NCBI RefSeq assembly: GCF_014873915.1 | Contig: NZ_JADBEJ010000004.1 | Span: forward strand, 1,178,001 to 1,242,000 | Direction of reading: 5' to 3' | DNA: 64,000 nucleotides | Origin: Amycolatopsis roodepoortensis | GTDB lineage: Bacteria > Actinomycetota > Actinomycetes > Mycobacteriales > Pseudonocardiaceae | Shown here: positions 23,101-64,000 of the stretch, one piece after another | How the letters are laid out: each line of letters begins with the position of its first letter | Numbering within the stretch: the stretch's first letter is position 1 | Notes under the pieces: generated by a model | The model's input: the letters and a program-made list of their open reading frames with translations, nothing else | Told to the model about the DNA's origin: nothing | Database searches by the model: none | Made by a program: the position numbers and the translations under genes

Positions 23101-23101
23101 T

Positions 23102-31291: not shown

Positions 31292-32491
31292 ATGACGTCG
31301 ACGCGACAGGATCCCATCGAGCGGCTCACCCGGCGGTTCGACTACCACGATCCCGAATACACCCCCGAAGTCGCGGAGATCGTCAACCGCGAGATCGGCA
31401 AGAACGAGGGTGTCACCTATTCCGAAGCGCACGGGGGCATGTGGATCCTGTCGCGCTACGAGCAGGTCAAAGCGGCCTTCAAGGATCACGCCACGTACAG
31501 CTCGGGCAGCGGTGTCTTCTTCCCGCGGGCGGCGGGGACGCCGAAGTTCTCGCCGATCGACTTCGATCCGCCGGAGCACCGCGCCCGTCGCAGGCTGATG
31601 TCTCCCCCGCTGCAACAGGATGTGGTGCGGAGCCTCGAGTCCCAGGTCGCCGAGCTCACTTCTCGCATGGTCCGGCCGATGGTCGAGCGCGGACACGGGG
31701 ATTTCACCGGGGAGGTGTCGAAGCCGCTCGCGATCGGTGTGCTCGCGATCGCCCTCGGGTTGTCGGAATCGGCGCAGCACCAGATCCGGGAACTGACCAC
31801 GACGTTGTGGGCGCGGCTTTCGAAGAACCCCGACCTGACGGATTTCTGGCCGGAGTTCCGCCAGCTGGTCTCGGAAGAGGTCCGGCGGGCGAAGGAGGAG
31901 CCGGGCGATTCCTACCTGTCGCGGCTGGTCGGGGCCGAGCTGAACGGTGAGCCGCTGTCCGAGGAGACCCTCCAGTCGATCATCGTCTCGTACTGCATCG
32001 CCGGTCACGAAACCACGATGAACACCATCAGCCGGATGTTGTGGTATCTCGGGAGCAATCCCCTTCTCCAGGAACGGCTCAAGGCCGAACCGGACCTCAT
32101 GCCGGTCGCGGCCGACGAGACGCTGCGCCGGTGGTGCCCGACCGATCGGTTCACCCGGGTCACCACCCGTGACGTGACGATCGCCGGGACCGCGATCCCC
32201 GAAGGCTCCCGGGTGGTCTTCCTGCTGGACGCGGCGAACCGTGATCCGGACAAGTTCCCCGACCCGGACACGTTCTCCCTCGACCGCGGGAATTCGCACC
32301 AGCACTTGAGCTTCGGCTTCGGCATCCACCACTGCATGGGCGCGCACCTGGCGAGGCTGGAGCTGCGGATCGTGCTCCAGGAGCTGGCGCGGCACCCGGT
32401 CTACCACCTCACCGAAGATCCGGGCCGCCATTTCGAAAACGGCAGGCACATCGTGTTCGAAAAAGTCCCGGTCAAATTCGAAACCAGCTAG
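31292..32491 (+). CDS. Cytochrome P450 (probable aryl-acid hydroxylase)
   Basis: The 399-residue soluble P450 has the I-helix motif AGHETT (237-242), the ExxR motif E276-R279 in DETLRRW, and the heme loop FGFGIHHCMGAHLAR with Cys348. GGGCGGAA precedes the ATG at 31292, and the frame further upstream is non-coding. It leads a two-gene operon with an O-methyltransferase, next to an iterative aromatic PKS. In the neocarzinostatin and azinomycin clusters a P450 in this position hydroxylates the naphthoic acid before O-methylation, so the same step is inferred here. Confidence 0.9.
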   Translation: MTSTRQDPIERLTRRFDYHDPEYTPEVAEIVNREIGKNEGVTYSEAHGGMWILSRYEQVKAAFKDHATYSSGSGVFFPRAAGTPKFSPIDFDPPEHRARRRLMSPPLQQDVVRSLESQVAELTSRMVRPMVERGHGDFTGEVSKPLAIGVLAIALGLSESAQHQIRELTTTLWARLSKNPDLTDFWPEFRQLVSEEVRRAKEEPGDSYLSRLVGAELNGEPLSEETLQSIIVSYCIAGHETTMNTISRMLWYLGSNPLLQERLKAEPDLMPVAADETLRRWCPTDRFTRVTTRDVTIAGTAIPEGSRVVFLLDAANRDPDKFPDPDTFSLDRGNSHQHLSFGFGIHHCMGAHLARLELRIVLQELARHPVYHLTEDPGRHFENGRHIVFEKVPVKFETS

Positions 32492-32504
32492 AAGGGGAAA
32501 CCCA

Positions 32505-33518
32505 GTGGACACTCAACCCGCCCTCGACGGCCTGGTCCGGCTGACCAGCGGCCTGTGGGCATCGCAGACACTGGTCGCCGCCGAAGACCTCGGCCTGTTC
32601 ACCTTCCTCTCCGGCGGGAGCGCGACCCCGGCCGAGGTCGCGGCGGGAACCGGGATCGCGGAGCGGCCGGCGGAGATCCTGCTCACCGCGTGCGCCGCGC
32701 TCGACCTGCTGGACGCCGACGGCGGCCGGTTCCGCAACACGCCGGTCGCCGAGGCGTATCTGGTGAAGGGGAAGCCGGACTACTTCGGCGACTACATCAG
32801 GATGCTCGGCCAGTACGCCAACCCCGGCTGGATGCGGGTCACCGAGATCGTCCGGGCGAACAGGCCGGGCAGGCTGCTTTCGGGAGACCAGGAGGAGATC
32901 TTCGAGGAAGGAACCCGGCCGAGGATCTTCTGGGACGGCCTGTACCCGCTTTCCGCCGGCACGGCCCGGGTCCTGGCGGAGGAGGTCGACTTCGGCGAGA
33001 CCTCCACCCTGCTCGACGTCGGGGGCGGGGGCGGCGCTTTCGCCGTCGAATTGTGCCGTCGCCATCCCGGCCTCCACACCACGATCTTCGACCTGCCCTT
33101 CGTGTGCGAGTACACAGTGGACAAAGTCGAGGAAGCGAAACTGTCCGACCGGATCAGCCTGCGTTCCGGCGACTTCCTTCAGGACGCGGAACTGCCGCCG
33201 GGTCACGACGCGATCCTGCTTTCCATGATCCTGCACGATTGGGACGAGGCCAGGAACGCCGAGCTGCTGGCCAAATGCCATCGCGCGCTGCCGAGCGGCG
33301 GGCTGCTGGTGATATCCGAGCTGCTGGTCGACGACGACAAGGCCGGTCCGGCCGACGCCGCGCTCATGAGCATGGCAATGCTGGTCGGGACCTGGGGGCG
33401 CAACTACACGGCCGCGGAGTACCACGAATGGCTGACTGCCGCGGGATTCGACGACATCCGGACCGTGCGGTTCCAGGCGCCGGGCGCCAACGGGGCGATC
33501 ACGGCCAGAAAGCCCTGA
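32505..33518 (+). CDS. SAM-dependent O-methyltransferase (plant/ASMT type)
   Basis: The 337-residue protein starts with GTG after GAAGGGGAAA. Its N-terminal dimerisation/winged-helix domain is followed by a Rossmann domain with SAM motif LLDVGGGGGAFAVEL near residue 170 and the active-site segment ILHDWDEARNAELL near 243, whose His is the general base in this family. It should methylate a phenolic hydroxyl. The gene lies 13 bp after the P450, so hydroxylation followed by methylation of the PKS-derived acid is the simplest reading. It converges on the PKS gene. Confidence 0.88.
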   Translation: MDTQPALDGLVRLTSGLWASQTLVAAEDLGLFTFLSGGSATPAEVAAGTGIAERPAEILLTACAALDLLDADGGRFRNTPVAEAYLVKGKPDYFGDYIRMLGQYANPGWMRVTEIVRANRPGRLLSGDQEEIFEEGTRPRIFWDGLYPLSAGTARVLAEEVDFGETSTLLDVGGGGGAFAVELCRRHPGLHTTIFDLPFVCEYTVDKVEEAKLSDRISLRSGDFLQDAELPPGHDAILLSMILHDWDEARNAELLAKCHRALPSGGLLVISELLVDDDKAGPADAALMSMAMLVGTWGRNYTAAEYHEWLTAAGFDDIRTVRFQAPGANGAITARKP

Positions 33519-33531
33519 CCGGACCGAAACG

Positions 33532-33563
33532 AAGGGCGCCTTCCTCACGAGGAAGGCGCCCTT
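33532..33563. terminator. Bidirectional terminator between methyltransferase and PKS genes
   Basis: A 15-bp stem AAGGGCGCCTTCCTC/GAGGAAGGCGCCCTT with a very short loop is followed by TTTCTCTT on the plus strand. Confidence 0.8.
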
Positions 33564-33588
33564 TCTCTTGTCCCAAGCCGGATACGGG

Positions 33589-33631
33589 GAAAGCCCCTGT
33601 CGCAACCCGCGAGGTCGTGACAGGGGCTTTC
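33589..33631 (-). terminator. Terminator after the PKS gene
   Basis: A perfect 13-bp stem GAAAGCCCCTGTC/GACAGGGGCTTTC has a 17-nt loop. It lies 14 bp from the PKS stop on the minus strand. Confidence 0.65.
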
Positions 33632-33644
33632 GCCACTCGTGCGA

Positions 33645-36600
33645 TCAGGCCGCTTCGGGCTCCCGCAGGACCTCCGTGACGTGCGCGGAGAGCGCGGCGA
33701 CGGTCGGCTTCGCCCACAGGATCGTCGGCGGCAGATCGAGCCCGAACCGGCGGCTCAGCCGGACACGGAGACCGACGGTCATCACCGAGTCGACGCCCAG
33801 CTCGACCAGCGGACGCCGGAGGTCGACGTCCTCGGCGGCCAGGTTCAGCTCGGCGCCCACCTGTTCCCGGACCTCCTGGGTGATCAGCTCGTGCGCCTCT
33901 TCGGCGGACAGGCTCGCCCAGTCGACGTCCGTACCGCCGTCGGCCTCGGCCGCGTCGGCGTCGATGGCGGCCAGATCCCGGAACATCGGCACCCGGGTGG
34001 TCCGCGCCGGCAGCGGCAGGACCCGCAGGACCGCCTGGTACGGCGCGTCGTACCGCTCGGCGAACGCCCAGGCGCGGAACGCCTCGGACGCGGTGATCGC
34101 TTCGAGGCCGCGGGCGTTGGCCTCGAACATCGTGCTGGCGATGCTCTCCGACATCCCGACACCGAGCCAGGACGTCCAGCCGATGCTCGTGGTCTCGGAG
34201 TGCCCACCGGCGTTGCGGTGCGCGGCCAGCGCGTCGAGGAACGAGTTCGCCGCGGCGTAGTTGGTCTGCCCGGTGAGCCTGGCGAACTGGCCACAGGACG
34301 AGAACAGGACGAGGAAGTCCAGCGTCCCCGGCGGGAACAGCCGGTGCAGCACCAGCCCACCGCTCGCCTTGGGAGCGAGCACGTCACGCAGGCCGTCCAG
34401 GTCCACCTTGTCGATCAGCGCGTCGTTGACCACACCGGCGGCGTGGATGACGCCACGGATCGGCGGCAGCCCGTGGTTCGCCGGGTCGAGGGCCCTGGCG
34501 ACGTCCACCTCGTCGGTGATGTCCACCGGCACCGCGCGCACCGTGACCCCGGCCGCCTCGAGCGCGAGCACGCTGTCGATCTGGTGCCGGACCTGCGGAT
34601 CCGTGACGGCGTCCCAATCCGAACGAGGCGGCAGGCCGCGCCGTCCCGCGAGCAGGAGCCGCCGGGCGCCGCGGTCGGCGAGCCACTGCGCGACCTCGAG
34701 ACCGAGACCACCGAGACCACCGGTGATCAGGTAGGTACCGGTGGCCCGGCACTGGAGGCTCGCGCCGTCCGACGGCCGCTCGATGGTGGTCAAGCGGGCG
34801 ACCTCGGTGGCGTCGCCGGACAGCGAGATGACGTCTTCGGTGCCACCGGCGTGCCGGAGCAGCGTGAGCAGCCGATCCGCGGTGTCCTCGTCGACCTCGT
34901 CGACGTCGATCGCGCCACCCCACAGCTCCGGACGTTCACCGGCGGCGATCCGCGCGACACCCCAGAGCGGTCCGTGCGCGAGCGCCGCCTCGTCCACGGC
35001 TTTGCGGACGCCTCGCGAGAGCGCCCAGACCTGCTGCGATGCGAAGTCGTCGCCGGCGATCGACGCGATCTCGCTGATCCGCTGAAGGGTCCGGATCACC
35101 GTCCAGCTCGCCCGTTCGGTCGCGGCTTCGAGCGTTTCGCCCGACCGGGCGAGCGAGGGCGCGATCACGACCGCGCCCGGCTCCGACAGCATCGACTCGC
35201 CGAAATCGGCGGCACAGTCGCAGTCGCGCGCCGCGTCCTGGTGCGGATCCGGCCCGCAGACACGCACCGCCCGGGTGCCGAGCGCTTCGAACCGGGCCGC
35301 GAGGAGACCGGTGACCGACGGGTCTCCGACGAGCAGGACCTGGCGCAGTTCACGCCGGGTTTCCGCCGGCTCCAACGGCTTCCAGGCGATCTCGTGCACG
35401 AGGTCGCGCGGGCCCGCCGCCGCGGCGCCGAGGTGTTCCACCGCCGCGAACCGCAGTCCGGTGACCTCGCAGACGATCCTGCCGGTCTCGTCGGCGACCA
35501 GGACGTCGGTGGTGTCCCGCGGGGAACGCGGCGATCGGCGGCTGTGCACCACGATCTTCGCGGGCGGGACACCGTCGAAGACGACCTTCTCGATCGACCT
35601 CGACATCCACAGCACGGGGGCGTCCTCGGGGGTCACCACGACCGCGCTGATGGTCAGCGCGCCGTCGATGACGTGCGCCCAGCTGGCCGCGTTCGGGGCG
35701 CCCGGCTCGATGGTCATCACCGCGAGCTGCTCCGAATCCGTGCGGCGCAGTTCGTCGAGGTCCCACGGGAACGCGTAGCCACCGACTCCCATCCGGCGGA
35801 ACATCGTGTCGACCTTCTCCCACGACCACTCCGGCAGCCGATCGCGGAGATCCGCGGTGTCGATCGTGCCTTCGGTGACCCGCACCCCGGGTTCGACCGC
35901 CGCCGTGGTGTGGGTGATCCACTCGTGTTCCTCACCGGCGTTGCCGTCTTCGGCGAGCCGGGTGGAAAGCCGGAGGGTGTTCTCCGAGGACACGATCTGC
36001 ACGACCCGCGGCGGGACGACGGAAAGCGGGGTGCGCAGGACGATGTCGGTGATCGCCGCCTGCTTGCCGTCGCGGACCGCCGCCTCGGCGAAGGTGTTGA
36101 TGATCGACGCCGCCGGGGTGATCTCGACACCGACCACCTCGTGGCTGAGCGGGTACGGGCGGCAGTCCATGTCCAGATAGGTCTGCCACACCACCCGCGC
36201 GGGAGAGCCGCTGACGGCCATCTTCCCGCCGAGCAGGCTGTGCTTCTCCGGATCGTGCCCGCCGCCGACACCGTTCGATCCGGTGGCGTCGTCGCCGAAG
36301 ATCCAATAAGGACGGTGCTGCCACGCCACGGCGGGCAGGGCGAGCAGCGGGGTGTCCGGATGCTCGGCCGCCCAGTCGAAGTCGGCGCCCTCGCAGTGCA
36401 ACTCGGCGAAGTTCGTCAGCAGCGTGGCGACCTCGTCCTGGTCGCGCCGCATCGTGAAGGCGACCTTCGCCTCCTCGACATCGAGGTGGTCGAGCGTCTC
36501 CTTGATCGAGTGGGTGACCACCGGATGCGAAGAGACTTCGAGGAACAACCGGTATCCGTCTTCGATCGCCGCCGTCACGGCCTGCGCGCAACGGACGGGC

Positions 36601-39038
36601 TGCCGGAGGTTCGCCACCCAGTAGGCGGTATCACGGGGAGCCGCCGAACGGACATCGGTCAGCGCCGTGCTGTAGAGCGGGACGTCCGGGGTACGCGGGG
36701 TGAGCTCGGCGGCCGCGGCCGCCACGTTCGCGACGACCTCGTCGACGTGCTCGCTGTGGAAGGCGATGTCCGTGTCGACCGTCCAGATCCCGATCCCGTC
36801 GGTCTTCCATTCCGCGGCGAGCCGTTCGACAGCGGCGCGGTCGCCGGAGACGACGGTCGAGCCAGGGCTCGCGGCGATGGCGGCTTCGACGCCGTCGTGC
36901 CCGGCCAAGCGCCGCTCGGCCTCGTCGAATGCCAGGCCCGCCATGGCCATCCCGCCACGGCCGGCGAGCGGCTGCAACGCGGCGGCCCGGCGGCAGGCGA
37001 AACGCGCGGCTTCCCGGACGTCCAGCGCGCCCGCGGCGACCGCCGCGGCGATCTCGCCGACCGAGTGGCCAAGGACGGCGGCGGGCTTCGCGCCGTGGCG
37101 GCGCCAGACCGCGGCGAGACCGATCTGCATCGCGAAGGTCATCGCCTGGACGTGCGAGGCACTCCACGGCCCACCGTCCACAATGGCCTCACGCGGGGTC
37201 CAGCCGAGTTCGGCGCGGAACACGTCAGCGAGGGAATCGATCGCTTCGGCGAACACGGGTTCCTCGACGAGCAGACGGCGACCCATCCCGGACCATTGCG
37301 CGCCGTGTCCGGAGAACACCCAGACGACCTTGCCGTCCGCGGCCGAGGGCACCCGTCCCTTGGCGACGCCGGGTGCGGGCCGTCCCTCGGCGAGCGCGCG
37401 CAGGCGTTCGGTCAGTTCGGCGGTCGAACCCGCCACGACCGCCGCGCGCTGCGCGAGGTGGGAACGCCGCCGGGACAACGTGTTCCCGACGGAAGCGAGC
37501 GAGACACCGGGGTTCGCGGCCAGCCACTCCGCCGTCGTCGCGGCGAGGGCCCGTACTCCCCCGTCGGAAGCCGCCGACAGCGGGAACACCGACGTGCCCA
37601 GTTCCGCGTTGGCACCCCTCAGCGCCTCGGGCGCGGCGACCGGGGCCTCCTTGAGGATGACGTGGGCGATCGAACCGCCGACGCCGTAGCTGGAAACTCC
37701 GGCGATCCGCGGCTGCTCGCCACGCGGCCACTCCTGGCGGTCCGCCACCAGGCGCAGCCCGGAACCGGCCCAGTCGAACTCGGGGTTCGGTTCGTCGTGC
37801 AGGCTCGGCGGGATCTCTTCGTTGCCCAGCGCGAGAATCACCTTGATCACCCCGGCGATCCCGGAACCGGCCTCGACGTGCCCGATGTTCGGCTTCACCG
37901 AACCGATCAGGCAGGGGTCGTCCACCCTGCTCTCACCGCCGAACACCGCCGCCAGCGCCTGGGCCTCCTCGCGGTCTCCGACCGGGGTGCCGGTGCCGTG
38001 CGCCTCGACGTAGCCGACCGCCCCGGGCGCGACGCCCGCCCGCCGGTACGCCTGACGCAGCATGTGTTCCTGCGCCTCTCCGTTCGGCGCCATCATGCCG
38101 TCCGATTTGCCGTCCTGGAACACCCCGCTGCCCGCCACGATCGCGAGCACCTGGTCGCCGTCACGGCGCGCGTCGGACAGTCGCTTGAGCACCACGACAC
38201 CGGCGCCTTCGCCACGTCCGTACCCGTCGGCGTTCTTGTCGAAGGCCTTGGACTTCCCGTCCGGTGCCAGCGCTCCCGCGGCTTCGAGCGCGATATTGAG
38301 CGTCGGGCTGGCCATGATGTTGACCCCGCCGACGATCGCGACCGGGGTCTCCCCGATCCGCAGGCTCTGGCAGGCGAGGTGCAACGCGGTCAGCGAACCC
38401 GCGCAGGCCGTGTCGACGGCGAGGCTCGGCCCGCGCAGGTCGAGGAAGTAGGAGATGCGGTTGGCGATGCCGTAATAGGTGGTGCCGTTGACCGCGTAGG
38501 CGCCGGTGCGGCCGACGTCCTCGAGCAGCCGCCGCCCGTAGTCGTTGGAGTTCGCCGCGACGAACACGCCCGTCTCCGAACCACGCAGGAGATGCGGCGG
38601 GAGCCCGGCGTCGACCAGCGCCTCCCAGGCCAGCTCCAGGATGATGCGCTGCTGCGGGTCGAGGAAATCGGCTTCCCTGGGGGAAATACCGAAGAAGTCC
38701 GCGTCGAATCCCTCGATGTCATCGAGAAAAGCACCCTTGCGGGTGGTTTTCCGAAGAATGTTCGTGGCCTGTGGGCTGGCGGCCGCGTAAGATGACCATC
38801 GTCTCTCCGGCATCTCGCGCACCGAATCACGCCCGTCGATCAGGAACTCCCACAACTTTCCCGGAGAGTCGAGGTCAGGGGCGAACCGGCAGCTCATGCC
38901 GACGACGGCCACCGCGTCTGAAAATTGCACGTCCTGGCTCAAGTCCCTGCTCCTCTTCGCATTCAAGACCCGGCCGCGTAAACGATCATCGCGGATGACG
39001 GAATTGTTCGTCATGGCCGGGAACTCCGACCGAGTCAT
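33645..39038 (-). CDS. Iterative type I PKS (KS-AT-DH-KR-ACP, 6-MSAS/naphthoate synthase type)
   Basis: The 1797-residue protein has one full module. The KS covers about 40-465 (Cys212 in VDTACAGS, His347 in EAHGTGT, His387 in NIGHVE). The AT covers 570-890 (Ser659 in GHSVG; AFH at 759-761, the malonyl-type specificity motif). The DH or thioester-handling domain has His966 in [10 protein letters not shown] and Asp1125 in HVIDGALT. The KR covers 1430-1610 (GGLGGLG at 1440; Tyr1594 and Asn1598 in NYAAANSF), and the ACP has Ser1751 in GVDSV. Size and order match bacterial 6-methylsalicylate and naphthoate synthases (ChlB1, NcsB, AziB types), which act iteratively and release an aromatic acid; there is no thioesterase. 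A second ATG at 39014 with GGAG upstream is an equally good start. Chain length cannot be read from sequence. Confidence 0.93.
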
Positions 39039-56285: not shown

Positions 56286-56573
56286 ATGATCATCGTCGCT
56301 GGATACTTCCAGATCGACGCCGCCGATCGGGACAAGTACGTCAAGCTGCACGAGGACGTCATCTCGCGGGCCCGGAAGTTCGAAGGATGCCTGGACTTCG
56401 CCATCACGGCGGACGCGGTGGACCCCGAGCGCGTGAACCTGTTCGAGCGCTGGGAATCCGACGAGGTGCTGAACTCCTGGCGCGCGGTCGCCAACCCGCC
56501 GGAGCAGTTCACCGAGATCAAGGGCGGTGACCTGGCGAAGTTCGAGATCGCCAGCGTCGGCTCGCCGTACTGA
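56286..56573 (+). CDS. Antibiotic biosynthesis monooxygenase (ABM) family protein
   Basis: The 95-residue protein has the dimeric ferredoxin-like ABM fold: VAGYFQIDAADRDKYVKLHED, ARKFEGCLDFAITADAVDPERVNLFERWES. Such proteins include cofactor-free quinol oxygenases (ActVA-Orf6 type) and non-catalytic members. AAAGGACAGGAA precedes the ATG. It ends the gene run from 48800; a catechol or quinone made from the mandelyl unit would be a suitable substrate, but that is inference. Confidence 0.8.
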   Translation: MIIVAGYFQIDAADRDKYVKLHEDVISRARKFEGCLDFAITADAVDPERVNLFERWESDEVLNSWRAVANPPEQFTEIKGGDLAKFEIASVGSPY

Positions 56574-56583
56574 TCGGCCACGA

Positions 56584-56626
56584 CGAAAGGGCCGTACCCG
56601 GCAGCCATCCGGGTACGGCCCTTTCG
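56584..56626. terminator. Bidirectional terminator between ABM and DUF899 genes
   Basis: A perfect 18-bp stem from CGAAAGGGCCGTACCCGG (56584-56601) and its complement (56609-56626) has a 7-nt loop and lies between convergent genes. Confidence 0.9.
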
Positions 56627-56631
56627 GTCTT

Positions 56632-57345: not shown

Positions 57346-57523
57346 TCCCGTGTTTTCATCCGATATTAGCCCGCCGGAGACAGCTCGTCCTACTCCGTGT
57401 TTGCCACGAGAGGACGCTTATCCTGGATTGTCACACCTTTCACGAGCACCCGGAACGCGTATTCACTCCGGTATTCTGACCAGTGGGGAACCGTCCGTGC
57501 CGGAGGCGAAAGGGAGCTGCCGC

Positions 57524-58444
57524 GTGACATTGCACAGGCTGGGATCGGTCACCATCGGGGTGCCCAATCTCGCGGAGACCTCCACCTACTACGACGACTT
57601 CGGCCTTGCCAGGGAAGAGGACGGCTGGTACTCCACTGTGGACGGTGGACGTCAGCTGCGGCTGGTGCAGTCCAGGTTCCGGCGGCTGGCGGGGATGACC
57701 GTCTCCGTCGACGACGAGGACGACCTCGGCCGGGCCGAGGCGAACCTGGAGCGGATCGGCGCCGCCCACCGCCGAGTGCCAGGCGGGCTGGTCGGCACCG
57801 ACCCGGCCACCGGGACCGAGGTGACGCTGAAGATCGAGCCGCGGATCCGGCAGACCGCCGGCGCCCCGACGCCGTACAACGCCAACGGGCGGATCGAACG
57901 ACCGGGAACGCGGGCGCCCGGCGTGCTGCGCGACGACCGGGTGCGGCCGAAGCGGCTCGGGCACGTGGTCCTCGGTTCGACCGATTTCGCGATCTCCCAG
58001 AAGTTCTTCGTCGAAGGCATCGGCTTCAAGGTCAGCGACCTGATCCGGAACGCGGGCGCGTTCCTGAGGTGCACGACGGAGCACCACAATCTGCTGCTCC
58101 TGCGTTCCCCGGTGACCTACCTGCACCACACCGGCTGGCAGGTCGACGACGTCGACGAGGTCGGCCGCGGCGCGACGTCGATGCTGGAGGACCATCCGGA
58201 ACGGCACGTCTGGGGCCTCGGGCGGCATCACGTCGGGTCCAACTTCTTCTGGTACCTCAAGGATCCCGCCGGCAACTTCAGCGAGTACTACAGCGACACG
58301 GACTGCATCCTCGACGACGAGCTGTGGAAGCCGGAGGTGTTCGAGGGCGCGCTGAGCTTCTTCAGCTGGGGCACTCCGCCGCCGCCGTCGTTCCTCGCGC
58401 CGGAGGACCTCGCCGCGCTGATGATGGGCGCGGAAGACGCCTGA
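57524..58444 (+). CDS. Extradiol dioxygenase-like VOC protein (two-domain)
   Basis: The 306-residue protein starts with GTG after AAGGGAG. It has two VOC domains as in BphC-type enzymes. In the C-terminal domain the presumed iron ligands are His in GHVVLGSTDF, His in YLHHTGWQVDD and Glu in NFSEYYSDTD, and the HVGSNFFWYLKDPAGN segment is close to catechol 2,3-dioxygenases. The N-terminal domain (GSVTIGVPNLAETSTYYDDFGL) is the usual non-catalytic one. It should cleave a catechol next to one hydroxyl. Possible substrates in this cluster are a 3,4-dihydroxyphenyl unit or a tryptophan-derived aminophenol. Confidence 0.82.
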   Translation: MTLHRLGSVTIGVPNLAETSTYYDDFGLAREEDGWYSTVDGGRQLRLVQSRFRRLAGMTVSVDDEDDLGRAEANLERIGAAHRRVPGGLVGTDPATGTEVTLKIEPRIRQTAGAPTPYNANGRIERPGTRAPGVLRDDRVRPKRLGHVVLGSTDFAISQKFFVEGIGFKVSDLIRNAGAFLRCTTEHHNLLLLRSPVTYLHHTGWQVDDVDEVGRGATSMLEDHPERHVWGLGRHHVGSNFFWYLKDPAGNFSEYYSDTDCILDDELWKPEVFEGALSFFSWGTPPPPSFLAPEDLAALMMGAEDA

Positions 58445-58628
58445 GCTCGGCCGTGGGTCACTCGGGTCGTTCTCCGCGGGCGGCTTCCCGCTGCGGCGGG
58501 TCGGTGAGCGTGTCCCGCCCTGACGATTCGGGTAGCCCGGGGGTAGGTCGAACAGGGTGCGGTCAAGTCTCGTGTCGAGCGGGTTTTCCGGGCCTTCGCG
58601 GCGCGGCCTGGATGACTCGCTGCGCTGT

Positions 58629-58681
58629 GTCGCGAAAGCCACTTTCGGGACGTCTGATGTCCCGAAAGTGGCTTTCGCGAC
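58629..58681. repeat. Hairpin repeat, copy 4
   Basis: Perfect 23-nt inverted arms with spacer GTCTGAT, identical to copy 3. Confidence 0.9.
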
Positions 58682-58719
58682 GCTCGATGCCGCCAGGACC
58701 GCTGGGCCCGGGTGCTCGT

Positions 58720-58772
58720 GTCGTGAAAGCCACTTTCGCAACGTTGAAGGTTGCGAAAGTGGCTTTCACAAC
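58720..58772. repeat. Hairpin repeat, copy 5 (divergent, with paired changes)
   Basis: The same length and core (AAAGCCACTTTC) as the other copies, but several arm positions differ and most changes are matched in the opposite arm, so pairing is kept. The spacer is GTTGAAG. It stands 38 bp from copy 4. Confidence 0.85.
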
Positions 58773-58983
58773 CTGCGCCGGACTGATCAAGGCCGTGCCG
58801 TGCACGTCCAGTGTCAGACGACGTGACGGACCCGGCAGGTAGGTGAACGCGAGTCCGCCAGAACCCGAAACGCCACACGCGAAACAGCTCATACGGACAT
58901 GAATCCGGCACTCGATCGCCGCTTTGTGTCCCCTGTGGACGATCAGAGCGTGCTCCGACCGCCCGCCGAGGCCGCATACGAGG

Positions 58984-59028
58984 CGAAGGGCGCTTTCCCC
59001 GCATAAGTCGCGGGGAAAGCGCCCTTCG
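58984..59028 (-). terminator. Terminator after the epoxide hydrolase gene
   Basis: A perfect 18-bp stem, CGAAGGGCGCTTTCCCCG with its complement (59011-59028), has a 9-nt loop and ends 12 bp from the epoxide hydrolase stop. Confidence 0.85.
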
Positions 59029-59039
59029 GCCTTTCCGGC

Positions 59040-60221
59040 TCAAGCGGCCCGCGCGTCCCGTCCGGCCCCGGCCACGAGCTTCCGCGTGAACTCCCGCAGA
59101 TCGGCCACGAGCAGATCCGGCTGCTCCAGCGCCGCGAAGTGCCCGCCCCGGTCGTGCTCGGTCCAGTGCGAGATGCTGGGGATGTCGCGTTCCGCGAGGC
59201 GGCGCACCGGCACGAAGATGTCGCGGGGGAACACCGCGACCCCGACCGGCACCGGTACCGGGGGCGGCACCGCGCCGCTCGCGGCCTGGCGGACGGCGTC
59301 CGCGCCCTCGTAGTAGAACTGGGCGGACGAGCCGGCGGTGGCCGTCAGCCAGTACAGCGTCACACCCGTCAGGATGTGGTCCCGGGCGACAGCGTCCTCG
59401 GGGAGCTCCGCCGAATCGGTCCACTCACGGAACTTCTCCACGATCCAGGCCAGCTGGCCGACGGGCGAGTCGGTGAGGGCGTAGGCGATCGTCTGCGGCC
59501 GGGTCGCCTGCACCTTCATGTAGCCCGAGAGTTCGGTGTCGAACCGGCCGAGCCCGGCCAGTCGCGCGCCGTCGGCTTCGGAGATGCCTTCGAGTTCCGC
59601 GGGGTCGCCCGACGGGAAGGTCATCAACATGTTCACGTGCACGCCGAGCACGTGTTCGGGGTCGATCATCCCCAGTACCAAGGAAATCGGCGAACCGGCG
59701 TCACCGCCTTGCGCGACGTAGCGATCGTATCCGAGGCGTGCCATGAGTTCCCGCCAGGCGCCCGCGATCCTCGGCACGTCCCAGCCGGGCTCGCGCAGCG
59801 TGGAGAACCCGTAGCCGGGGATGGACGGAACGACCACGTGGTAGGCGATCGAGGGATCCAGTCCGTGCGCGCGCGGGTCGGCCAGCGGCCCGATGACGTC
59901 GAGGAACTCGGCGAACGAACCGGGCCAGCCGTGCGTCAGCACGAGCGGGGTCGCGTCCGGTTCGGGTGACCGGACGTGCAGGAAGTGCACGTCCTCGCCG
60001 TCGATCTCGGTGATGAACTGCGGGAACTCGTTGATCCTCGCTTCCACCGCGCGCCAGTCGAACTCCTCCGCCCAGTACTCCGCCAGCTCGCGCAGATAGC
60101 CGAGCGGGACACCGCGATCCCAGCCGACGCCGGGAAGTTCGTCGGGCCAGCGGGTCTGCCCGATCCGGCGACGCAGATCCGCCAGGTCGGCCTCCGGCAC
60201 TGCGAGGCGGAAGGGCTTCAT
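59040..60221 (-). CDS. Epoxide hydrolase with EHN domain (SgcF/NcsF-like)
   Basis: The 393-residue protein has an N-terminal EHN domain (PFRLAVPEADLADLRRRIGQTRWPDELPG, VPLGYLRELAEYWAEEFDWR) and an alpha/beta hydrolase core. HGWPGSFAEF is the oxyanion region, QGGDAGSPIS carries the nucleophile Asp, and a C-terminal catalytic His lies in DRGGHFAALEQPD. It should open an epoxide to a vicinal diol. Enediyne clusters carry such enzymes (SgcF, NcsF2), though the family is also general. The ATG at 60221 has GGAG 6 nt upstream; 60236 is an alternative. Confidence 0.88.
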   Translation of the reverse strand: MKPFRLAVPEADLADLRRRIGQTRWPDELPGVGWDRGVPLGYLRELAEYWAEEFDWRAVEARINEFPQFITEIDGEDVHFLHVRSPEPDATPLVLTHGWPGSFAEFLDVIGPLADPRAHGLDPSIAYHVVVPSIPGYGFSTLREPGWDVPRIAGAWRELMARLGYDRYVAQGGDAGSPISLVLGMIDPEHVLGVHVNMLMTFPSGDPAELEGISEADGARLAGLGRFDTELSGYMKVQATRPQTIAYALTDSPVGQLAWIVEKFREWTDSAELPEDAVARDHILTGVTLYWLTATAGSSAQFYYEGADAVRQAASGAVPPPVPVPVGVAVFPRDIFVPVRRLAERDIPSISHWTEHDRGGHFAALEQPDLLVADLREFTRKLVAGAGRDARAA

Positions 60222-60450
60222 AACGACTCCGATCATCGAAAACGACAGTGCTCCCCCGGCGAGCACGCTAACCCTCCGGTACGGCCGGGCACGTCTTCTC
60301 GGCTGCGTGCCCGGACCGGGAACCACCAAGCAGTCGGGAAGAAGTCTCCGCGCCGGCGAACATGTGACGATTTCCATCACCGGGATGAAAAATCCGGTGG
60401 CGCGGTCGCGGTGCGACGGCGTCCGGGAGACCTCGACCCTTTGGGGAGCC

Positions 60451-61233
60451 ATGGACAAGGTATTTTCGCGCGACGGCACCGCGATCACGGTCCAGCGGAT
60501 CGGCGCCGGTCATCCCGTGGTCCTGCTCGGCGGAGCGCTCTGCGACCACTGGGCCACCGCGGAACTGGCGGAGCTGCTGGCCCCGAATTTCGAGGTGTTC
60601 AACGTCAGCCGCCGCGGCCGCGGGGAAAGTGGCGACACCGCCCCCTACGCGGTCGAGCGCGAACAGGAAGACCTCGAGGCGGTCATCGCCGAGGCCGGCG
60701 GCCGGGCCCACGTCTTCGCCCACTGCACCGGGGCGGTGCTGGCCTTCGACGTCGCGTTGCGCGGGGACGGGATCACGAAGCTCGTCGCCTACGAGCCGCC
60801 GTACATCCTGGAGGGCTCGCGTGAGCGCCTCGACGAGAAGTACCGGTCCGACCTCGCGGAGCACATCCGCGACGACCGGCCCGGCGACGCCGTCAAGCAT
60901 TTCATGATCAACGCGGTCGGGTTCAAACCGGACTCGGTCGGCCGCATCGAGCAGTCCGAGGCGTGGCCGCATCTGGTCGGTCTGGCGCACACCCTGCCTT
61001 ACGACGGCGAGATCATCGGCGACTGCCACGTGCCCGACCGGATCTCGCGGATCACCGTGCCGACGCTGGGTGTCACGGGTGAGAAAAGCCCGCAGTGGCA
61101 ACAGGATTCCCTCGCCGAGGTGGTTTCGAGGATCCCCGGGGCGCGCGCGGTCACCCTGCCCGAGGCCGACCACAACCTGGTCGCCGCCTCCGTGGCCCCG
61201 TCGGTGATCGAGTTCTTCGGCACGGACGACTGA
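60451..61233 (+). CDS. Alpha/beta hydrolase with Cys at the nucleophile position
   Basis: The 260-residue protein is a paralogue of the hydrolase at 46225 (VLLGGALCDHWA, FNVSRRGRGESGD, VAYEPPYI, DRPGDAV in both with small changes). In place of the GxSxG elbow it reads VFAHCTGAVLAF, so Cys replaces the nucleophile Ser; the C-terminal His is kept in EADHNLVAA. Cys-type alpha/beta hydrolases include thioesterase- and dienelactone hydrolase-like enzymes. GGGGAGCC precedes the ATG. It begins a run with the FAD monooxygenase and tryptophan dioxygenase. Confidence 0.82.
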   Translation: MDKVFSRDGTAITVQRIGAGHPVVLLGGALCDHWATAELAELLAPNFEVFNVSRRGRGESGDTAPYAVEREQEDLEAVIAEAGGRAHVFAHCTGAVLAFDVALRGDGITKLVAYEPPYILEGSRERLDEKYRSDLAEHIRDDRPGDAVKHFMINAVGFKPDSVGRIEQSEAWPHLVGLAHTLPYDGEIIGDCHVPDRISRITVPTLGVTGEKSPQWQQDSLAEVVSRIPGARAVTLPEADHNLVAASVAPSVIEFFGTDD

Positions 61234-61284
61234 GCGGCCGTCCCGGCGACCGACCGAATACAGGACGAACACAGGGAGGCCCTG

Positions 61285-62676
61285 GTGGGCAAGCAAGTAG
61301 GAGAGCGCGCGGTCGTTCTCGGTGGCAGTATGGCCGGTCTGCTGGCCGCCCGGGTCCTGTCGGAGTCCTACGCGGACGTCGTCATCGTCGACCGGGACGA
61401 GCTGCACGGCGTGCGGACGGCACGCCGTGGGGTGCCGCAGGGCAGGCACGTGCACGGGCTGCTCGCGAGAGGGCAGCAGATCCTCGACGAACTGTTCGAC
61501 GGGTTCACCGAAGCCGCTGTCGAGGCCGGTGTCCCCACCGGCGACCTCGGGGAACTTCGCTGGTACTTCAACGGCAGGCGGCTTTCCCCCGCGCACACCG
61601 GCTTGGTCTGTGTGTCGGCCGCGCGCCCGGTGCTGGAAGGTCTCGTCCGCGACCGCGTCGAGGCGATCGGCAACGTCCGGCTGCTGGATGGCCACACGGT
61701 GCTCGGGCCGATCCTGTCCGAGGACCGCTCGCGGGTCGAGGGCGTCGAGATCCGGGACGGTGCCTCGGGAACCGATCAGCGGCTGGTGGCCGATCTGGTG
61801 GTCGACGCGACCGGGCGCGGGTCGCGGACCCCGGCGTGGCTGACCGAACTCGGTTACGCCGCGCCGGAAGAGGACCGGGTCAGGATCGACCTGACCTACA
61901 CGACACGGGTGTACCGGCTGCCGGACGGCGGACCGCTCGGCGACGATCTGTCGATCAACCCGGTGTCCACTCCGTCGCATCCGCGGGGCGCGTTCCTCTC
62001 GCGGATCGAGGGCGGCAAGTTCATGGTCTCCCTCACCGGCGTGCTCGGCGACAGCGCGCCCACCGACGAAGCCGGCTTCATGGCGTTCGCGAAGTCGCTC
62101 GAAGTCCCCGACGTGTACGACGTCATGAAGGACGCCGAACCGCTCGGCGACGCGGTCGCCTTCCGGTACCCGGCGAGCGTCCGCCGTCACTACGAACGGC
62201 TGACCGGGTTCCCGGACGGTCTGCTCGTCGTCGGCGACGCCGTGTGCAGTTTCAACCCGGTCTACGGACAGGGCATGACCGTCGCCGCGCTCACGGCGCT
62301 GACCCTGCGGAACCACCTGCGCGAAGGGAAGGCCCCGGAAGCACTGGCCTTCTTCAAGGACATCTCCGCGGAGATCGACGTCCCGTGGCAGATCTCCGCG
62401 TCGGGTGACCTGAGTTTCCCCGGTGTCGAAGGGAAACGTCCGGCGCAGGTCCGGATCGCCAACGCCTACATGGGCCGCGTGCAGCGCGCCGCGACCAGGG
62501 ACGGCCGGGTCACCGGCACCTTCATGCGGGTCGCCGGGCTGGTCGAGCCCGCGACGACCCTGATGAAGCCCGCCATGATGCTGCGCGTGCTGAGGCAGTC
62601 CCGCCGGGTCCCCGCCCCGGTACCCGCGCCCATATCCGTTGCCACCGACGAGAAATCAGGGAGGCGCGCGGCATGA
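61285..62676 (+). CDS. FAD-dependent monooxygenase/oxidoreductase (class A type)
   Basis: The 463-residue protein begins with a GTG after CAGGGAGG. It has the FAD-binding Rossmann motif RAVVLGGSMAGLLAARVLSE, the region DATGRGSRTPAWL and the second FAD motif VVGDAVCSFNPVYGQGMTVAA. It is related to aromatic-ring hydroxylases, but the RGVPQGRHVHGLLARGQ segment is typical of an actinobacterial subgroup without defined substrate. It is coupled by 4 bp to the tryptophan 2,3-dioxygenase, so it may act on a kynurenine-derived intermediate. Confidence 0.83.
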   Translation: MGKQVGERAVVLGGSMAGLLAARVLSESYADVVIVDRDELHGVRTARRGVPQGRHVHGLLARGQQILDELFDGFTEAAVEAGVPTGDLGELRWYFNGRRLSPAHTGLVCVSAARPVLEGLVRDRVEAIGNVRLLDGHTVLGPILSEDRSRVEGVEIRDGASGTDQRLVADLVVDATGRGSRTPAWLTELGYAAPEEDRVRIDLTYTTRVYRLPDGGPLGDDLSINPVSTPSHPRGAFLSRIEGGKFMVSLTGVLGDSAPTDEAGFMAFAKSLEVPDVYDVMKDAEPLGDAVAFRYPASVRRHYERLTGFPDGLLVVGDAVCSFNPVYGQGMTVAALTALTLRNHLREGKAPEALAFFKDISAEIDVPWQISASGDLSFPGVEGKRPAQVRIANAYMGRVQRAATRDGRVTGTFMRVAGLVEPATTLMKPAMMLRVLRQSRRVPAPVPAPISVATDEKSGRRAA

Positions 62677-63437
62677 CCGCTGCCGACGAAGCAGCCCATA
62701 CCGCCTACCGCGGTTATCTCGCCCTCGACGAACTGCTGGAGCTTCAACAGCCCAACACCGGCGAACACGACGAGTTGCTCTTCGTCATCGTGCACCAGGT
62801 GCACGAGCTCTGGTTCAAGCAGCTGCTGCACGAGTTCGCCGAGCTCGCGCGGGCGTTCGAAGAAGGCGAGCCGGGAGCGGCGCTGCGGACCATCGGGCGG
62901 CTCATCGCGATCGTGCGGGTGACGCTCCGGCAGATCGACGTGCTCGACACGCTCACACCGGGGCAGTTCGTCCGGTTCCGGGACGACCTCGGCGGCAGCG
63001 GGTTCTACTCCGCGCAGTTCCGCGAGATCGAGGTCGTCCTCGGCAGGCGTGACCCCGGCGTGTTCGACAAGTTCCCGGAGGGCACGTCCGACCGGGAGCG
63101 GCTGATCACCGCGATGACCAGGCCGCCCCTGTTCGACTCGTTCGCCGGCTACCTCACCGCGCAGGGGTTCCCGGTACTGCCCGGCGAATCCCCGGAAACG
63201 GCGGCGCCTTCGATCGCGAAGGCGTACCGCGAGGACGGCGTGGTGGCGCAGCTGTGCGAGCGCATGGTCGACCTCGACCAGATCTTCACCGAATGGCGCT
63301 ACCGGCATTCGACGATGGCCCGGCGCATCATCGGCGACAAGACCGGAACCGGTGGTTCGTCCGGCGCGGTCTATCTGCGCCGTGGCGTGTTCACGCCCTT
63401 GTTCCCCGCGCTGTGGGAGGTGCGGAACATCACTTGA
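62673..63437 (+). CDS. Tryptophan 2,3-dioxygenase
   Basis: The 254-residue heme enzyme opens the indole of L-tryptophan to N-formylkynurenine. Family signatures are visible: YLALDELLELQQ, FVIVHQVHELWFKQLLHEF with the substrate/heme-pocket His, RFRDDLGGSGFYSAQFREIE, and WRYRHSTMARRIIG followed by KTGTGGSSGAVYLRR with the axial His in WRYRH. A dedicated copy in a cluster usually supplies kynurenine, anthranilate or 3-hydroxyanthranilate building blocks, as in actinomycin or thiocoraline pathways. No kynureninase or formamidase is seen before the window ends. Confidence 0.92.
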   Translation: MTAADEAAHTAYRGYLALDELLELQQPNTGEHDELLFVIVHQVHELWFKQLLHEFAELARAFEEGEPGAALRTIGRLIAIVRVTLRQIDVLDTLTPGQFVRFRDDLGGSGFYSAQFREIEVVLGRRDPGVFDKFPEGTSDRERLITAMTRPPLFDSFAGYLTAQGFPVLPGESPETAAPSIAKAYREDGVVAQLCERMVDLDQIFTEWRYRHSTMARRIIGDKTGTGGSSGAVYLRRGVFTPLFPALWEVRNIT

Positions 63438-63488
63438 CACGCGGTGAAACCCTGCCGTCGATTCCGGACCTGATGAGGGAAAGCACTT

Positions 63489-64000
63489 ATGACACCGCAG
63501 AAGGACACCCCGGCCGGCTCGGTAGCCGCTCCGCCCACGACGACCGGGGTCGGCAGGCTCAGCCTCCGGGCCGTCGGCGCGGGCTCCTGGAGACGCTCAC
63601 CCCGGCTCGCCGTCGAACTCCTCGACCGTTGGTCCGCGCGGACCTCAGGGCCGGCGGCGGAGGGAACCTCGGGATTCCCCTTCGAGGCCGTGCTCGGGCA
63701 TTTCCAGGCGGTCGGCCGCAACCAGGCCGATCCGGACCTGATCGAGAGACTCCGTGTCCTCGCCGGATCGCTCCCCCCGCCGCGCACGGTCCACGACCGG
63801 ATCCTGGCGAACTGGCTGCCCGGCACCTTCGACCACGAGGACGGGAACTACGACTCCTACGCCGCGATCCCGCTCCTGGAGGAACTCGCCGGCGCGGACG
63901 GGCCGGACCGGATCGACGCCGGGCTCGACGGCTTGATCGTCGCGCTGCTGGCCGATCTCCTGCGGTTCGAAGCGACCGGGCTGCGGGCGAACCCGAACGC
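63489..64000 (+). CDS. Unknown protein, 5' part only (partial)
   Basis: The frame opens with ATG at 63489, 51 bp after the tryptophan dioxygenase stop (RBS GAGGGAAAGC), and runs off the window after about 170 codons. Visible segments include FPFEAVLGHFQAVGRNQADPD, ANWLPGTFDHEDGNYDSY and a helical ALLADLLRFEATGL. I do not recognise the family. Spacing and orientation suggest it belongs to the same operon as the FAD monooxygenase and tryptophan dioxygenase. Confidence 0.7.
   Translation, partial: MTPQKDTPAGSVAAPPTTTGVGRLSLRAVGAGSWRRSPRLAVELLDRWSARTSGPAAEGTSGFPFEAVLGHFQAVGRNQADPDLIERLRVLAGSLPPPRTVHDRILANWLPGTFDHEDGNYDSYAAIPLLEELAGADGPDRIDAGLDGLIVALLADLLRFEATGLRANPN

What the first reader, a model, noticed from the sequence alone, without database searches (positions are those of the whole stretch)
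31292..64000. Hybrid cluster joining an aromatic polyketide acid and a PCP-tethered mandelate, open at the right edge
Two acid-building arms lie together. One is PKS, P450, O-methyltransferase and aryl-acid ligase. The other is DAHP synthase, 4-hydroxymandelate synthase-like, A-PCP, condensation and HpaB-type hydroxylase. Both resemble peripheral-group pathways of chromoprotein enediynes (neocarzinostatin naphthoate and C-1027 beta-tyrosine), but I recall no described compound with both a 6-MSAS/naphthoate-type acid and a mandelate unit, plus tryptophan dioxygenase. The product could be new.
Basis: partly seen in the sequence, partly recalled or inferred. Interest (0 to 1): 0.85.

Follow-up and report, generated by a model that had tools for sequence, protein, structure and literature searches.

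The report
Decoration half of a split enediyne cluster
This DNA carries genes that look set to build and attach the side groups of an enediyne (a class of potent DNA-cutting natural products), while the genes for the enediyne core sit at least 1.8 million bases away in the same bacterium, an arrangement that recurs in relatives and that core-centred genome mining would miss.

Summary
In detail: every named gene is present. The arms look like enediyne periphery: condensation enzyme, HpaB-type hydroxylase and an epoxide hydrolase match enediyne enzymes best in the PDB (names recalled), and relatives carry homologues beside PksE/UnbV. But PksE does not lie beyond base 64000. The arms sit on a 79.5-kb stretch (28,455-107,998) absent from this site in a congener; the genome's only PksE and UnbV are on another contig, at least 1.84 Mb away. 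The split recurs: G054, G085 and G205, sharing this core (UnbV 89-99%), have SgcC-like, epoxide hydrolase and condensation genes on the core's contig 3.0-6.4 Mb away. Family-wide, 23 of 36 genomes with an SgcC-like gene have it within 70 kb of UnbV. The claim that no compound joins both acids is wrong: amycolamycins A/B do. This island adds an indole/anthranilate arm and perhaps a small polyketide. Cooperation of the loci, and the product, are inferred. Verdict: new variant of the 9-membered enediyne cluster type.

The parts
28455..64000 (.). Window part of the 79.5-kb island (it continues to about 107,998 in extended coordinates, outside the window)
   Evidence: blastn against congener G085: own 27129-28454 and own 107999-109921 are 701 bp apart there
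28998..30877 (-). Two genes inside the island border, probably response regulator and sensor kinase
   Evidence: gene calls; BLASTP similarity of 31-34% to C5 genes, one of which is a histidine kinase by Pfam; not Pfam-scanned themselves
31292..32491 (+). Cytochrome P450, aryl-acid arm
   Evidence: PF00067
32505..33518 (+). O-methyltransferase, aryl-acid arm
   Evidence: PF00891/PF08100; best PDB hit RedM 8tji 1e-50, 3i53 (recalled as NcsB1) only 4e-13
33645..39038 (-). Iterative type I PKS KS-AT-DH-KR-ACP making an aromatic acid (6-MSA type or naphthoate type not settled)
   Evidence: Pfam; 82% to Amycolatopsis sp. NPDC021455, 55% to AziB; 81% in A. vastitatis; tree
39299..40849 (+). Aryl-acid adenylating ligase (2,3-DHB-AMP-ligase-like)
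   Evidence: PF00501, TIGR02275 519.7 bits, below its 723.55 cut-off
41021..41437 (-). SnoaL-like protein
   Evidence: PF13577; 65-71% homologues in loci of G031, G201, G143, G085
41465..42649 (-). Two-component flavin monooxygenase, HsaA-like
   Evidence: NF045629 235 bits, below its 450 cut-off; 66-72% in loci of G031, G201, G143, G085, G190
42871..43920 (+). DAHP synthase (aromatic precursor supply)
   Evidence: PF00793; 75% in G148 enediyne locus, 79% in G085 island
43987..45237 (-). Cytochrome P450
   Evidence: PF00067; 68-80% in loci of G031, G201, G143, G085, G190
45434..46120 (-). HxlR-type regulator
   Evidence: PF01638
46225..47034 (+). Alpha/beta hydrolase
   Evidence: PF12697
47197..48483 (-). 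MFS transporter
   Evidence: PF07690
48788..50551 (+). A-PCP didomain, taken to load the mandelate
   Evidence: PF00501/PF00550; PCP serine motif GGQSL; 52-57% in G148, G031, G201, G085
50548..51657 (+). 4-hydroxymandelate synthase
   Evidence: TIGR01263 329 bits; best PDB 7yvv 1e-109 and 2r5v 6e-98; GNI motif against GNF in primary HPPD
51654..53051 (+). Free-standing condensation enzyme, SgcC5-like, HHxxxDG intact
   Evidence: PF00668; best PDB 4znm 1e-108, next 2e-31; motif
53048..54607 (+). FADH2-dependent hydroxylase, SgcC-like (HpaB family)
   Evidence: best PDB 4oo2 3e-270 against 5e-185 for HpaB proper; homologues at 70-78% in 35 other genomes of 249
54649..56262 (+). MFS transporter
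   Evidence: PF07690; 42-55% in enediyne loci and islands
56286..56573 (+). ABM-fold small monooxygenase-like protein
   Evidence: PF03992; 45% in G148 locus
56632..57243 (-). DUF899 protein
   Evidence: PF05988; 64% in G148 enediyne locus
57497..58444 (+). Extradiol-dioxygenase/glyoxalase-fold protein
   Evidence: PF00903; TIGR03211 68 bits, far below cut-off
59040..60266 (-). Enediyne-type epoxide hydrolase
   Evidence: PF06441; best PDB 5f4z 7e-166 and 4i19 7e-155, next 3e-62; 60-73% in enediyne loci and islands
60364..61233 (+). Alpha/beta hydrolase
   Evidence: PF12697; 44% in G148 locus
61285..62676 (+). FAD oxidoreductase, no halogenase WxWxIP motif
   Evidence: PF12831; motif scan; 45-67% in enediyne loci and islands
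62673..63437 (+). Tryptophan 2,3-dioxygenase homologue, third (indole/anthranilate) arm
   Evidence: PF03301 166 bits, TIGR03036 207 bits, below its 390.7 cut-off; 56% in island of G054
63489..64000 (+). Start of a 437-aa TDO-like protein with a long N-terminal extension (continues to 64,802)
   Evidence: PF03301 37 bits; 51% beside the TDO homologue in G054

Best explanation
The finding is the periphery half of a 9-membered enediyne pathway that is split into two unlinked loci. The window lies in an actinomycete of the genus Amycolatopsis or very near it. A 79.5-kb island (28,455-107,998) makes and attaches side groups. In the mandelate arm, DAHP synthase raises precursor supply, HmaS makes 4-hydroxymandelate from 4-hydroxyphenylpyruvate, A-PCP loads it, the SgcC-like oxygenase hydroxylates the ring on the carrier, and the SgcC5-like condensation enzyme transfers the acyl group to the diol that the epoxide hydrolase opens on the core. 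In the aryl arm, the iterative PKS makes an aromatic acid that the P450 and methyltransferase tailor and the ligase activates. A third, indole/anthranilate-derived arm uses TrpD/TrpC/TrpA homologues, two TDO-like proteins, a methyltransferase, a salicylyl-CoA-hydroxylase-like FAD enzyme and ligases. A short modular PKS may give a fourth unit. The core comes from a separate, conserved locus on contig C5 (PksE, thioesterase, UnbV, DUF1702, P450 and others). Shown: gene content, borders against one congener, physical separation, recurrence in relatives. Inferred: every reaction, the structure, and that the two loci act together.
For: Closest solved relatives of three enzymes stand apart from the rest: EH 5f4z/4i19, C enzyme 4znm, hydroxylase 4oo2; their names NcsF/SgcF, SgcC5 and SgcC are recalled. 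G148 has the whole mandelate set and EH in one locus with PksE and UnbV; G201 has it without EH in the fetched stretch; G143 has HmaS and the SgcC-like gene there. In L078 the aryl PKS, ligase and HsaA-like gene lie beside PksE; in A. vastitatis the aryl PKS and ligase lie beside homologues of k12, k14, k15 of the core locus. G054's island holds EH, SgcC-like gene, both TDO-like genes, the methyltransferase and a ligase, so the third arm looks like periphery too. The own genome has one UnbV (all 21 candidates scored) and one PksE (all 104 scored; the second match is a 38% partial hit), both on C5. Core and island are at least 1.84 Mb apart. The core locus is colinear at 80-100% in G054, G205, G085, G231, G183 and A. 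orientalis, with no match to the island's EH, C, SgcC-like or A-PCP genes in the ~40 kb fetched from each. Of 36 of 249 genomes with an SgcC-like gene at 70% identity or more: 23 within 70 kb of UnbV, 6 on the same contig 0.28-6.4 Mb away, 6 on different contigs, 1 without UnbV at the cut.
Against: No expression, knockout or metabolite data; the two loci could work independently. The modular PKS, YcaO/TfuA and glycosyltransferase genes at the right of the island have no enediyne precedent that I found. Unlike amycolamycin, no clear amino-sugar gene was seen among the scanned genes (one 543-aa protein has a 19.9-bit partial match to a dTDP-glucose dehydratase model) and no gene with the halogenase WxWxIP motif among the called genes. 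Four congeners with the conserved core (G015, G107, G157, G183) have no SgcC-like gene at the cut. G231's distant SgcC-like gene (70%) has no EH or C neighbour in the 60 kb fetched and its best EH lies elsewhere again, so G231 is a weak case; G124 was not fetched and is only a case of different contigs. One search scored at most 4 candidates per genome, so a second, weaker UnbV could be missed in relatives. The own genome is a draft of 8 contigs, though both loci lie deep inside contigs. The 70% cut was my choice after seeing the table; G141 and G223 (67%) fall below it.
Confidence: 0.72

Rival explanations
1. The island is a patchwork: the aryl, mandelate and indole arms serve the enediyne, while the right part (modular PKS, P450s, acyltransferase, YcaO/TfuA, glycosyltransferase, 73-107 kb extended) is a second, unrelated small cluster that landed in the same place.
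For: No modular PKS of this make-up was seen in the enediyne loci and islands compared; it has its own loading module and thioesterase.
Against: It lies inside the same 79.5-kb stretch missing from G085, and an Acyl_transf_3 homologue also sits in the islands of G085 (49%) and G205 (39%) and some 20 kb from G201's mandelate genes (53%).
Confidence: 0.45
2. Not an enediyne decoration set: the epoxide hydrolase and condensation enzyme attach the acids to the product of the modular PKS on the island, and the C5 enediyne core works alone.
For: The modular PKS with thioesterase is adjacent; nothing on C5 is physically linked to the island.
Against: EH, SgcC-like and SgcC5-like proteins match enediyne enzymes far better than anything else in the PDB, and homologous sets sit beside PksE in other genera and recur without this modular PKS.
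Confidence: 0.12
3. It is the amycolamycin pathway itself, merely rearranged, so the product is already known.
For: Same pairing of an iterative-PKS aryl acid and a PCP-bound mandelate; amycolamycin comes from an Amycolatopsis. The best PDB match of HmaS, 7yvv, I recall as AcmP1; a paper search for that name found nothing relevant.
Against: acm is described as one contiguous ~76-kb region with aminosugar, C-methyltransferase and halogenase genes; here a P450 and an O-methyltransferase-family enzyme flank the aryl PKS, no clear sugar genes or halogenase motif were found, and TDO/Trp genes are added. The acm sequence itself was not available for comparison.
Confidence: 0.07
4. The separation is an assembly artefact.
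For: Draft genome of 8 contigs.
Against: Both loci are more than 0.54 Mb from the nearer contig end, the flanks of both are colinear with congeners, and G054, G085 and G205 show the same separation within single contigs.
Confidence: 0.02

Closest known systems
Amycolamycin (acm) cluster, Amycolatopsis sp. HCa4
   Same: Iterative-PKS aryl acid with ligase, mandelate from 4-hydroxyphenylpyruvate via A-PCP and hydroxylase, type II condensation enzyme, enediyne core (review passages)
   Different: acm is contiguous with its core and has aminosugar, C-methyltransferase and halogenase genes as described; here core and periphery are unlinked, the aryl PKS is flanked by P450 and O-methyltransferase, and an indole/anthranilate arm is added. 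acm sequence not compared.
C-1027 (sgc) beta-tyrosine arm
   Same: SgcC-like hydroxylase, SgcC5-like condensation enzyme, PCP-bound aryl acid, SgcF-like epoxide hydrolase (gene names recalled)
   Different: The acid is a mandelate from HmaS, not a beta-tyrosine; no aminomutase among the scanned genes
Neocarzinostatin (ncs) and azinomycin (azi) naphthoate arms
   Same: Iterative PKS, P450, O-methyltransferase and ligase in one pathway (recalled)
   Different: PKS only 55% to AziB and in a separate clade; methyltransferase closer to RedM than to 3i53 (recalled NcsB1)
Enediyne cluster of strain CB03578
   Same: Said to carry tryptophan-degradation genes, methyltransferases and activation/condensing enzymes, implying an anthranilic acid-like moiety (PMC5181780, passage seen)
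   Different: Its sequence was not compared; no mandelate arm is mentioned in the passages seen
   Same: PksE, UnbV, DAHP synthase, iterative PKS, A-PCP, HmaS, C enzyme, SgcC-like gene, EH on one 59-kb contig
   Different: Core and periphery together; no match to the TDO genes on the contig

Membership tests
9-membered enediyne biosynthetic gene cluster | PksE with thioesterase and the UnbV/DUF1702 accessory cassette | tested here: inconclusive
   Present once in the genome, on C5, not in the window or within 79 kb to its right. Met by the genome, not by the island.
9-membered enediyne biosynthetic gene cluster | Periphery genes: enediyne-type epoxide hydrolase, SgcC-type hydroxylase, SgcC5-type condensation enzyme | tested here: met
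   homologues beside PksE in relatives
9-membered enediyne biosynthetic gene cluster | Core and periphery genes in one contiguous cluster (usual arrangement, recalled; 23 of 36 here) | tested here: not met
   At least 1.84 Mb apart
9-membered enediyne biosynthetic gene cluster | Enediyne or cycloaromatised product | not testable with these tools
   needs metabolite analysis
Amycolamycin-type cluster | Iterative PKS plus ligase for an aryl acid | tested here: met
Amycolamycin-type cluster | Mandelate from 4-hydroxyphenylpyruvate on an A-PCP (genes) | tested here: met
   activity not tested
Amycolamycin-type cluster | Halogenase for the chloro-mandelate | tested here: not met
   no WxWxIP motif in the called genes of either locus; the motif is recalled and other halogenase classes were not tested
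Amycolamycin-type cluster | Aminosugar genes | tested here: inconclusive
   none clear among the scanned island genes (one 19.9-bit partial match to a dTDP-glucose dehydratase model) or the scanned core genes; not all genes were scanned and genes elsewhere in the genome are not excluded
Chromoprotein enediyne | Apoprotein gene (PF00960) | tested here: inconclusive
   No match in own genome, but no control rang
Hydroxymandelate synthase | HPPD fold with Phe-to-Ile change in the C-terminal GN(F/I) motif (recalled) | tested here: met
   GNI here; GNF in own primary HPPD
Azinomycin-type naphthoate synthase | PKS in the AziB clade | tested here: not met
   Outside the 8-row clade with AziB (100/99 support), within a 30-row sister clade (98/93); tree of 42 rows, 34 of the 120 listed homologues used. 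NcsB was not available.

The most novel reading that the evidence does not exclude
A clade of Amycolatopsis keeps one nearly invariant, stand-alone enediyne core locus and pairs it with unlinked, exchangeable periphery islands, some at tRNA genes. The chemistry would then evolve by swapping islands while the warhead stays put. The island studied here would give one core three aromatic acyl arms (aryl polyketide, mandelate, indole/anthranilate) and possibly a short polyketide.
Probability: 0.42. Interest if true: 0.78.

Novelty: new variant of a known kind. Interest (0 to 1): 0.62.

Why it matters
Enediynes are potent DNA-cleaving compounds used as antibody-drug payloads, and few are structurally known. 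Genome mining usually looks for PksE and reads its neighbourhood. In this clade that would find a bare core, and a scan of the island would find aryl-acid genes without a scaffold, so the pathway would be misread twice. If the loci cooperate, the bacteria offer a natural experiment in mixing one core with different side-arm sets. Pairing the two halves by genome, not by distance, makes that testable.

Tried and rejected
1. PksE in the right flank: read 79 kb past the window; genes were called over all of it but Pfam-scanned only to 106,482. Found TrpD/TrpC/TrpA homologues, ligases and a modular PKS of five modules, no PksE; the genome-wide ketosynthase list agrees. PF10069 was a poor first guess for an enediyne marker and found nothing.

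2. HmaS as an enediyne marker: HmaS homologues in G209 and G142 sit among NRPS genes, so the SgcC-like gene and UnbV were used instead.

3. Naphthoate or 6-MSA: the tree puts the PKS outside the AziB clade, but no row of the other side has chemistry known to me, so the acid is left open. The O-methyltransferase does not favour NcsB1.

4. Epoxide hydrolase as a marker: too paralogous (150 of 249 genomes match, 7 matches in the own genome); used only within fetched loci.

5. Structure of HmaS from a single sequence: mean pLDDT 32.8, useless, not searched further.

6. Literature: ten searches, on enediyne with mandel-, Amycolatopsis/naphtho-, split, genome neighborhood network, unlinked/two loci, YcaO, CB03578 and core/peripheral/distant terms, and on amycolamycin and AcmP1/7YVV. 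I saw listings with the starts of abstracts (25 of 48 papers, 30 of 5,072, 15 of 103), plus passages of PMC8037709, PMC5181780 and PMC10381858. None that I saw describes an enediyne cluster with unlinked core and periphery. One search returned mostly unrelated papers and most subscription papers are not held, so this is weak evidence of absence. Ma et al. 2017 (amycolamycins) was not read.

7. Mobility of the own island: no tRNA at its edges and no exact direct repeat of 12 bases or more between the two border stretches. In G085 no second copy of the tRNA-Arg 3' end was found.

G231's distant SgcC-like gene has no EH or C neighbour and G124 shows only different contigs, so the firm cases are the own genome, G054, G085 and G205. 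For this the probability of the novel case was lowered from 0.45 to 0.42.

Full report
Where the window lies. The window is contig C4, 1178001-1242000, of a 9.1-Mb actinomycete genome in 8 contigs. It is taken to be an Amycolatopsis: chromosomal genes at the window's left edge are 91-97% identical to A. orientalis and its PksE is 95% identical to that of A. orientalis. I extended it to the right by 79 kb and number that DNA on from the window ('extended' coordinates up to 143,000). Genes were called by GC frame, so starts are approximate.

What is there. Beyond 64,000 come a TDO-like protein (63,489-64,802), a methyltransferase, homologues of TrpD, TrpC and TrpA, a salicylyl-CoA-5-hydroxylase-like FAD enzyme, a PaaK-like and a benzoate-CoA-ligase-like enzyme (to 73,181), then modular PKSs, two P450s, an acyltransferase, an MFS transporter, TfuA, YcaO and a glycosyltransferase. 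The modular PKS reads as KSQ (DSGQSSS) with an AT region lacking GHSxG and an ACP; then KS-AT-DH-KR-ACP; KS-AT-KR-ACP; KS-AT-DH-ER-KR-ACP; KS-AT-ACP-TE. There is no PksE.

Why these look like enediyne decorating genes. The epoxide hydrolase matches 5f4z and 4i19 (7e-166, 7e-155) and nothing else better than 3e-62. The condensation enzyme matches 4znm at 1e-108 and nothing else better than 2e-31. The HpaB-type enzyme matches 4oo2 at 3e-270 against 5e-185 for HpaB proper. I recall these entries as enzymes of the neocarzinostatin and C-1027 pathways; the tool names them only epoxide hydrolase, C-domain type II peptide synthetase and chlorophenol-4-monooxygenase. In other genomes homologues lie with PksE and UnbV. 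G148:C7 has DAHP synthase 75%, A-PCP 57%, HmaS 57%, C 52%, SgcC-like 77% and EH 73%. G201 has A-PCP, HmaS, C and SgcC-like genes but no EH in the 100 kb fetched. G143 has HmaS and the SgcC-like gene but no match to the C enzyme or EH. The aryl arm too: in a MAG (L078) the ligase (64%) and PKS (67%) lie within about 5 kb of PksE, and in A. vastitatis (L075) the PKS (82%) and ligase (75%) lie beside homologues (70-80%) of three genes of the own core locus; its PksE is on another contig. In G054 an island with EH and SgcC-like gene also holds both TDO-like genes (56%, 51%), the methyltransferase (63%) and a ligase (59%), but no match to the TrpD/TrpC/TrpA homologues. The modular PKS has no such support.

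Where the core is. The own genome has a single UnbV_ASPIC protein (21 of 21 candidates scored) and a single PksE (1942 aa), both within C5:2383-2411 kb, with thioesterase, carboxyl transferase, GMC oxidase, P450, DUF1702 and DUF5987 proteins. No gene of the 60-kb stretch fetched there has one of the island's EH, C, SgcC-like or A-PCP genes as its best match. Even if the nearest contig ends were joined, core and island would be 1.84 Mb apart (548,759 + 1,293,471 bp).

The island. In congener G085 the DNA left of own 28,454 and right of own 107,999 is 701 bp apart, so 28,455-107,998 (79.5 kb) is an insertion in one genome or a loss in the other. G085 has its own periphery island (EH 69%, SgcC-like 74%, HmaS 53%, DAHPS 79%, C 40%) in the same region, starting right after a tRNA-Arg (own 128,328-128,401). 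In A. orientalis the stretch with aryl PKS, ligase and EH runs up to the tRNA-Ala that follows the genes at own 3522-5176; its PksE is on another contig. The own island touches no tRNA and shows no terminal repeats.

How often core and periphery are apart. In 249 genomes of the family (own included), 94 have an HpaB-type match at E <= 1e-180. I kept those at 70% identity or more, a cut chosen after seeing the table: 36 genomes. Of these 23 have UnbV within 70 kb on the same contig, 6 have it on the same contig 0.28 to 6.4 Mb away (G099, G190, G205, G231, G054, G085), 6 on another contig (own, G031, G124, G009, G228, G011) and 1 has none at the cut. In the own genus (17 genomes with the own) 10 carry a UnbV 89-100% identical to the own. 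Six of these 10 have an SgcC-like gene at 70% or more, and in none is it found linked. Four of the six are firm: the own genome, and G054, G085 and G205, where SgcC-like gene, EH and C enzyme lie together 4.8, 6.4 and 3.0 Mb from UnbV on the same contig (6.4 Mb in G085 is at most 3.1 Mb if its 9.5-Mb contig is circular). G231 is weak: its SgcC-like gene (70%) is 3.2 Mb away but has no EH or C neighbour, and its best EH lies elsewhere again. G124 shows only different contigs. The other four (G015, G107, G157, G183) have no SgcC-like gene at the cut. The two congeners with a different core and an SgcC-like gene at 70% or more (G194, G214) have them 64 and 52 kb apart. Outside the genus, G190 (2.0 Mb) and G099 (0.28 Mb) are further cases on one contig. 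The fetched core stretches of G054, G205, G085, G231, G183 and A. orientalis are colinear with the own (80-100%) and show no match to EH, C, SgcC-like or A-PCP genes; the 60-kb periphery stretches of G054, G205, G085, G231, G190 and G099 show no match to PksE or UnbV. One search scored at most 4 candidates per genome, so a second, weaker UnbV may have been missed in relatives. G054, whose UnbV is 99% identical, has an SgcC-like gene only 74% identical, so the core is shared while the periphery differs.

How it most likely works. Shown: gene content, families, separation, recurrence. Inferred from family knowledge: HmaS makes 4-hydroxymandelate (GNI motif here against GNF in the genome's primary HPPD; the meaning of the motif is recalled), the A-PCP loads it, the SgcC-like enzyme hydroxylates it on the carrier, the epoxide hydrolase opens the core epoxide, and the condensation enzyme joins the acyl group to it. 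The iterative PKS makes an aryl acid, tailored by P450 and methyltransferase. Its class is open: 55% to AziB and outside the AziB clade. TDO, TDO-like protein and Trp homologues suggest an anthranilate- or indole-derived group; the order of steps is unknown. In the first TDO both histidines I recall as catalytic look present; in the second only the heme ligand does (sequences printed, read by eye, not aligned).

Compared with what is known. A review describes amycolamycins A and B and their acm genes (PMC8037709, passages): both acids, a type II condensation enzyme and an enediyne core in one ~76-kb region. So the combination is not new. A tryptophan-degradation arm was proposed for strain CB03578 (PMC5181780, passage). 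What I did not find in the searches listed under Tried and rejected is an enediyne pathway with unlinked core and periphery; most subscription papers were not searchable.

Verdict. I rate it a new variant of a known kind, interest 0.62. Cooperation of the two loci is the step that most needs an experiment.

Noticed in passing
G000:C5:2406750-2410601 (L139): A ThcOx/nitroreductase-like protein and a 782-aa YcaO protein sit next to the enediyne core; 88-99% in six relatives' core loci and present (46%, 55%) near the core of G190. The one paper search made listed one paper with both words, not a link.
   Followed up: partly
extended 101820-106482 (L002, L003, L006): TfuA and YcaO genes (McrA-glycine-thioamidation-like models, below those cut-offs) with a glycosyltransferase at the right end of the island.
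   Followed up: partly
window 5249-23148: tRNA-Ala at 5249-5322; colinearity with G085 stops exactly at the tRNA end and resumes at 23,148, so an accessory element probably sits there; its genes were not annotated.
   Followed up: no
extended 84829-97179 (L002): Loading module with KSQ (DSGQSSS) followed by an AT region without GHSxG: the starter would have to be loaded in trans.
   Followed up: partly
L001:489-1802: A TDO-like family with about 200 extra N-terminal residues and, by eye, no histidine where TDO has its substrate-binding one; 104 proteins at E <= 1e-3, among them ones of Salinactinospora and Thermobifida, which also have close relatives of the condensation enzyme.
   Followed up: partly
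G183:C1 1.94, 3.36 and 4.00 Mb: One congener has three UnbV genes: the conserved core plus two others with epoxide hydrolase genes about 11-26 kb away.
   Followed up: no
G031:C4 64-102 kb and G031:C45 65-105 kb: In another genus a mandelate periphery with epoxide hydrolase and the PksE locus are on different contigs; a possible further case of separation.
   Followed up: partly
window 56632-57243: DUF899 protein, 64% identical to one inside the G148 enediyne locus; role unknown.
   Followed up: no
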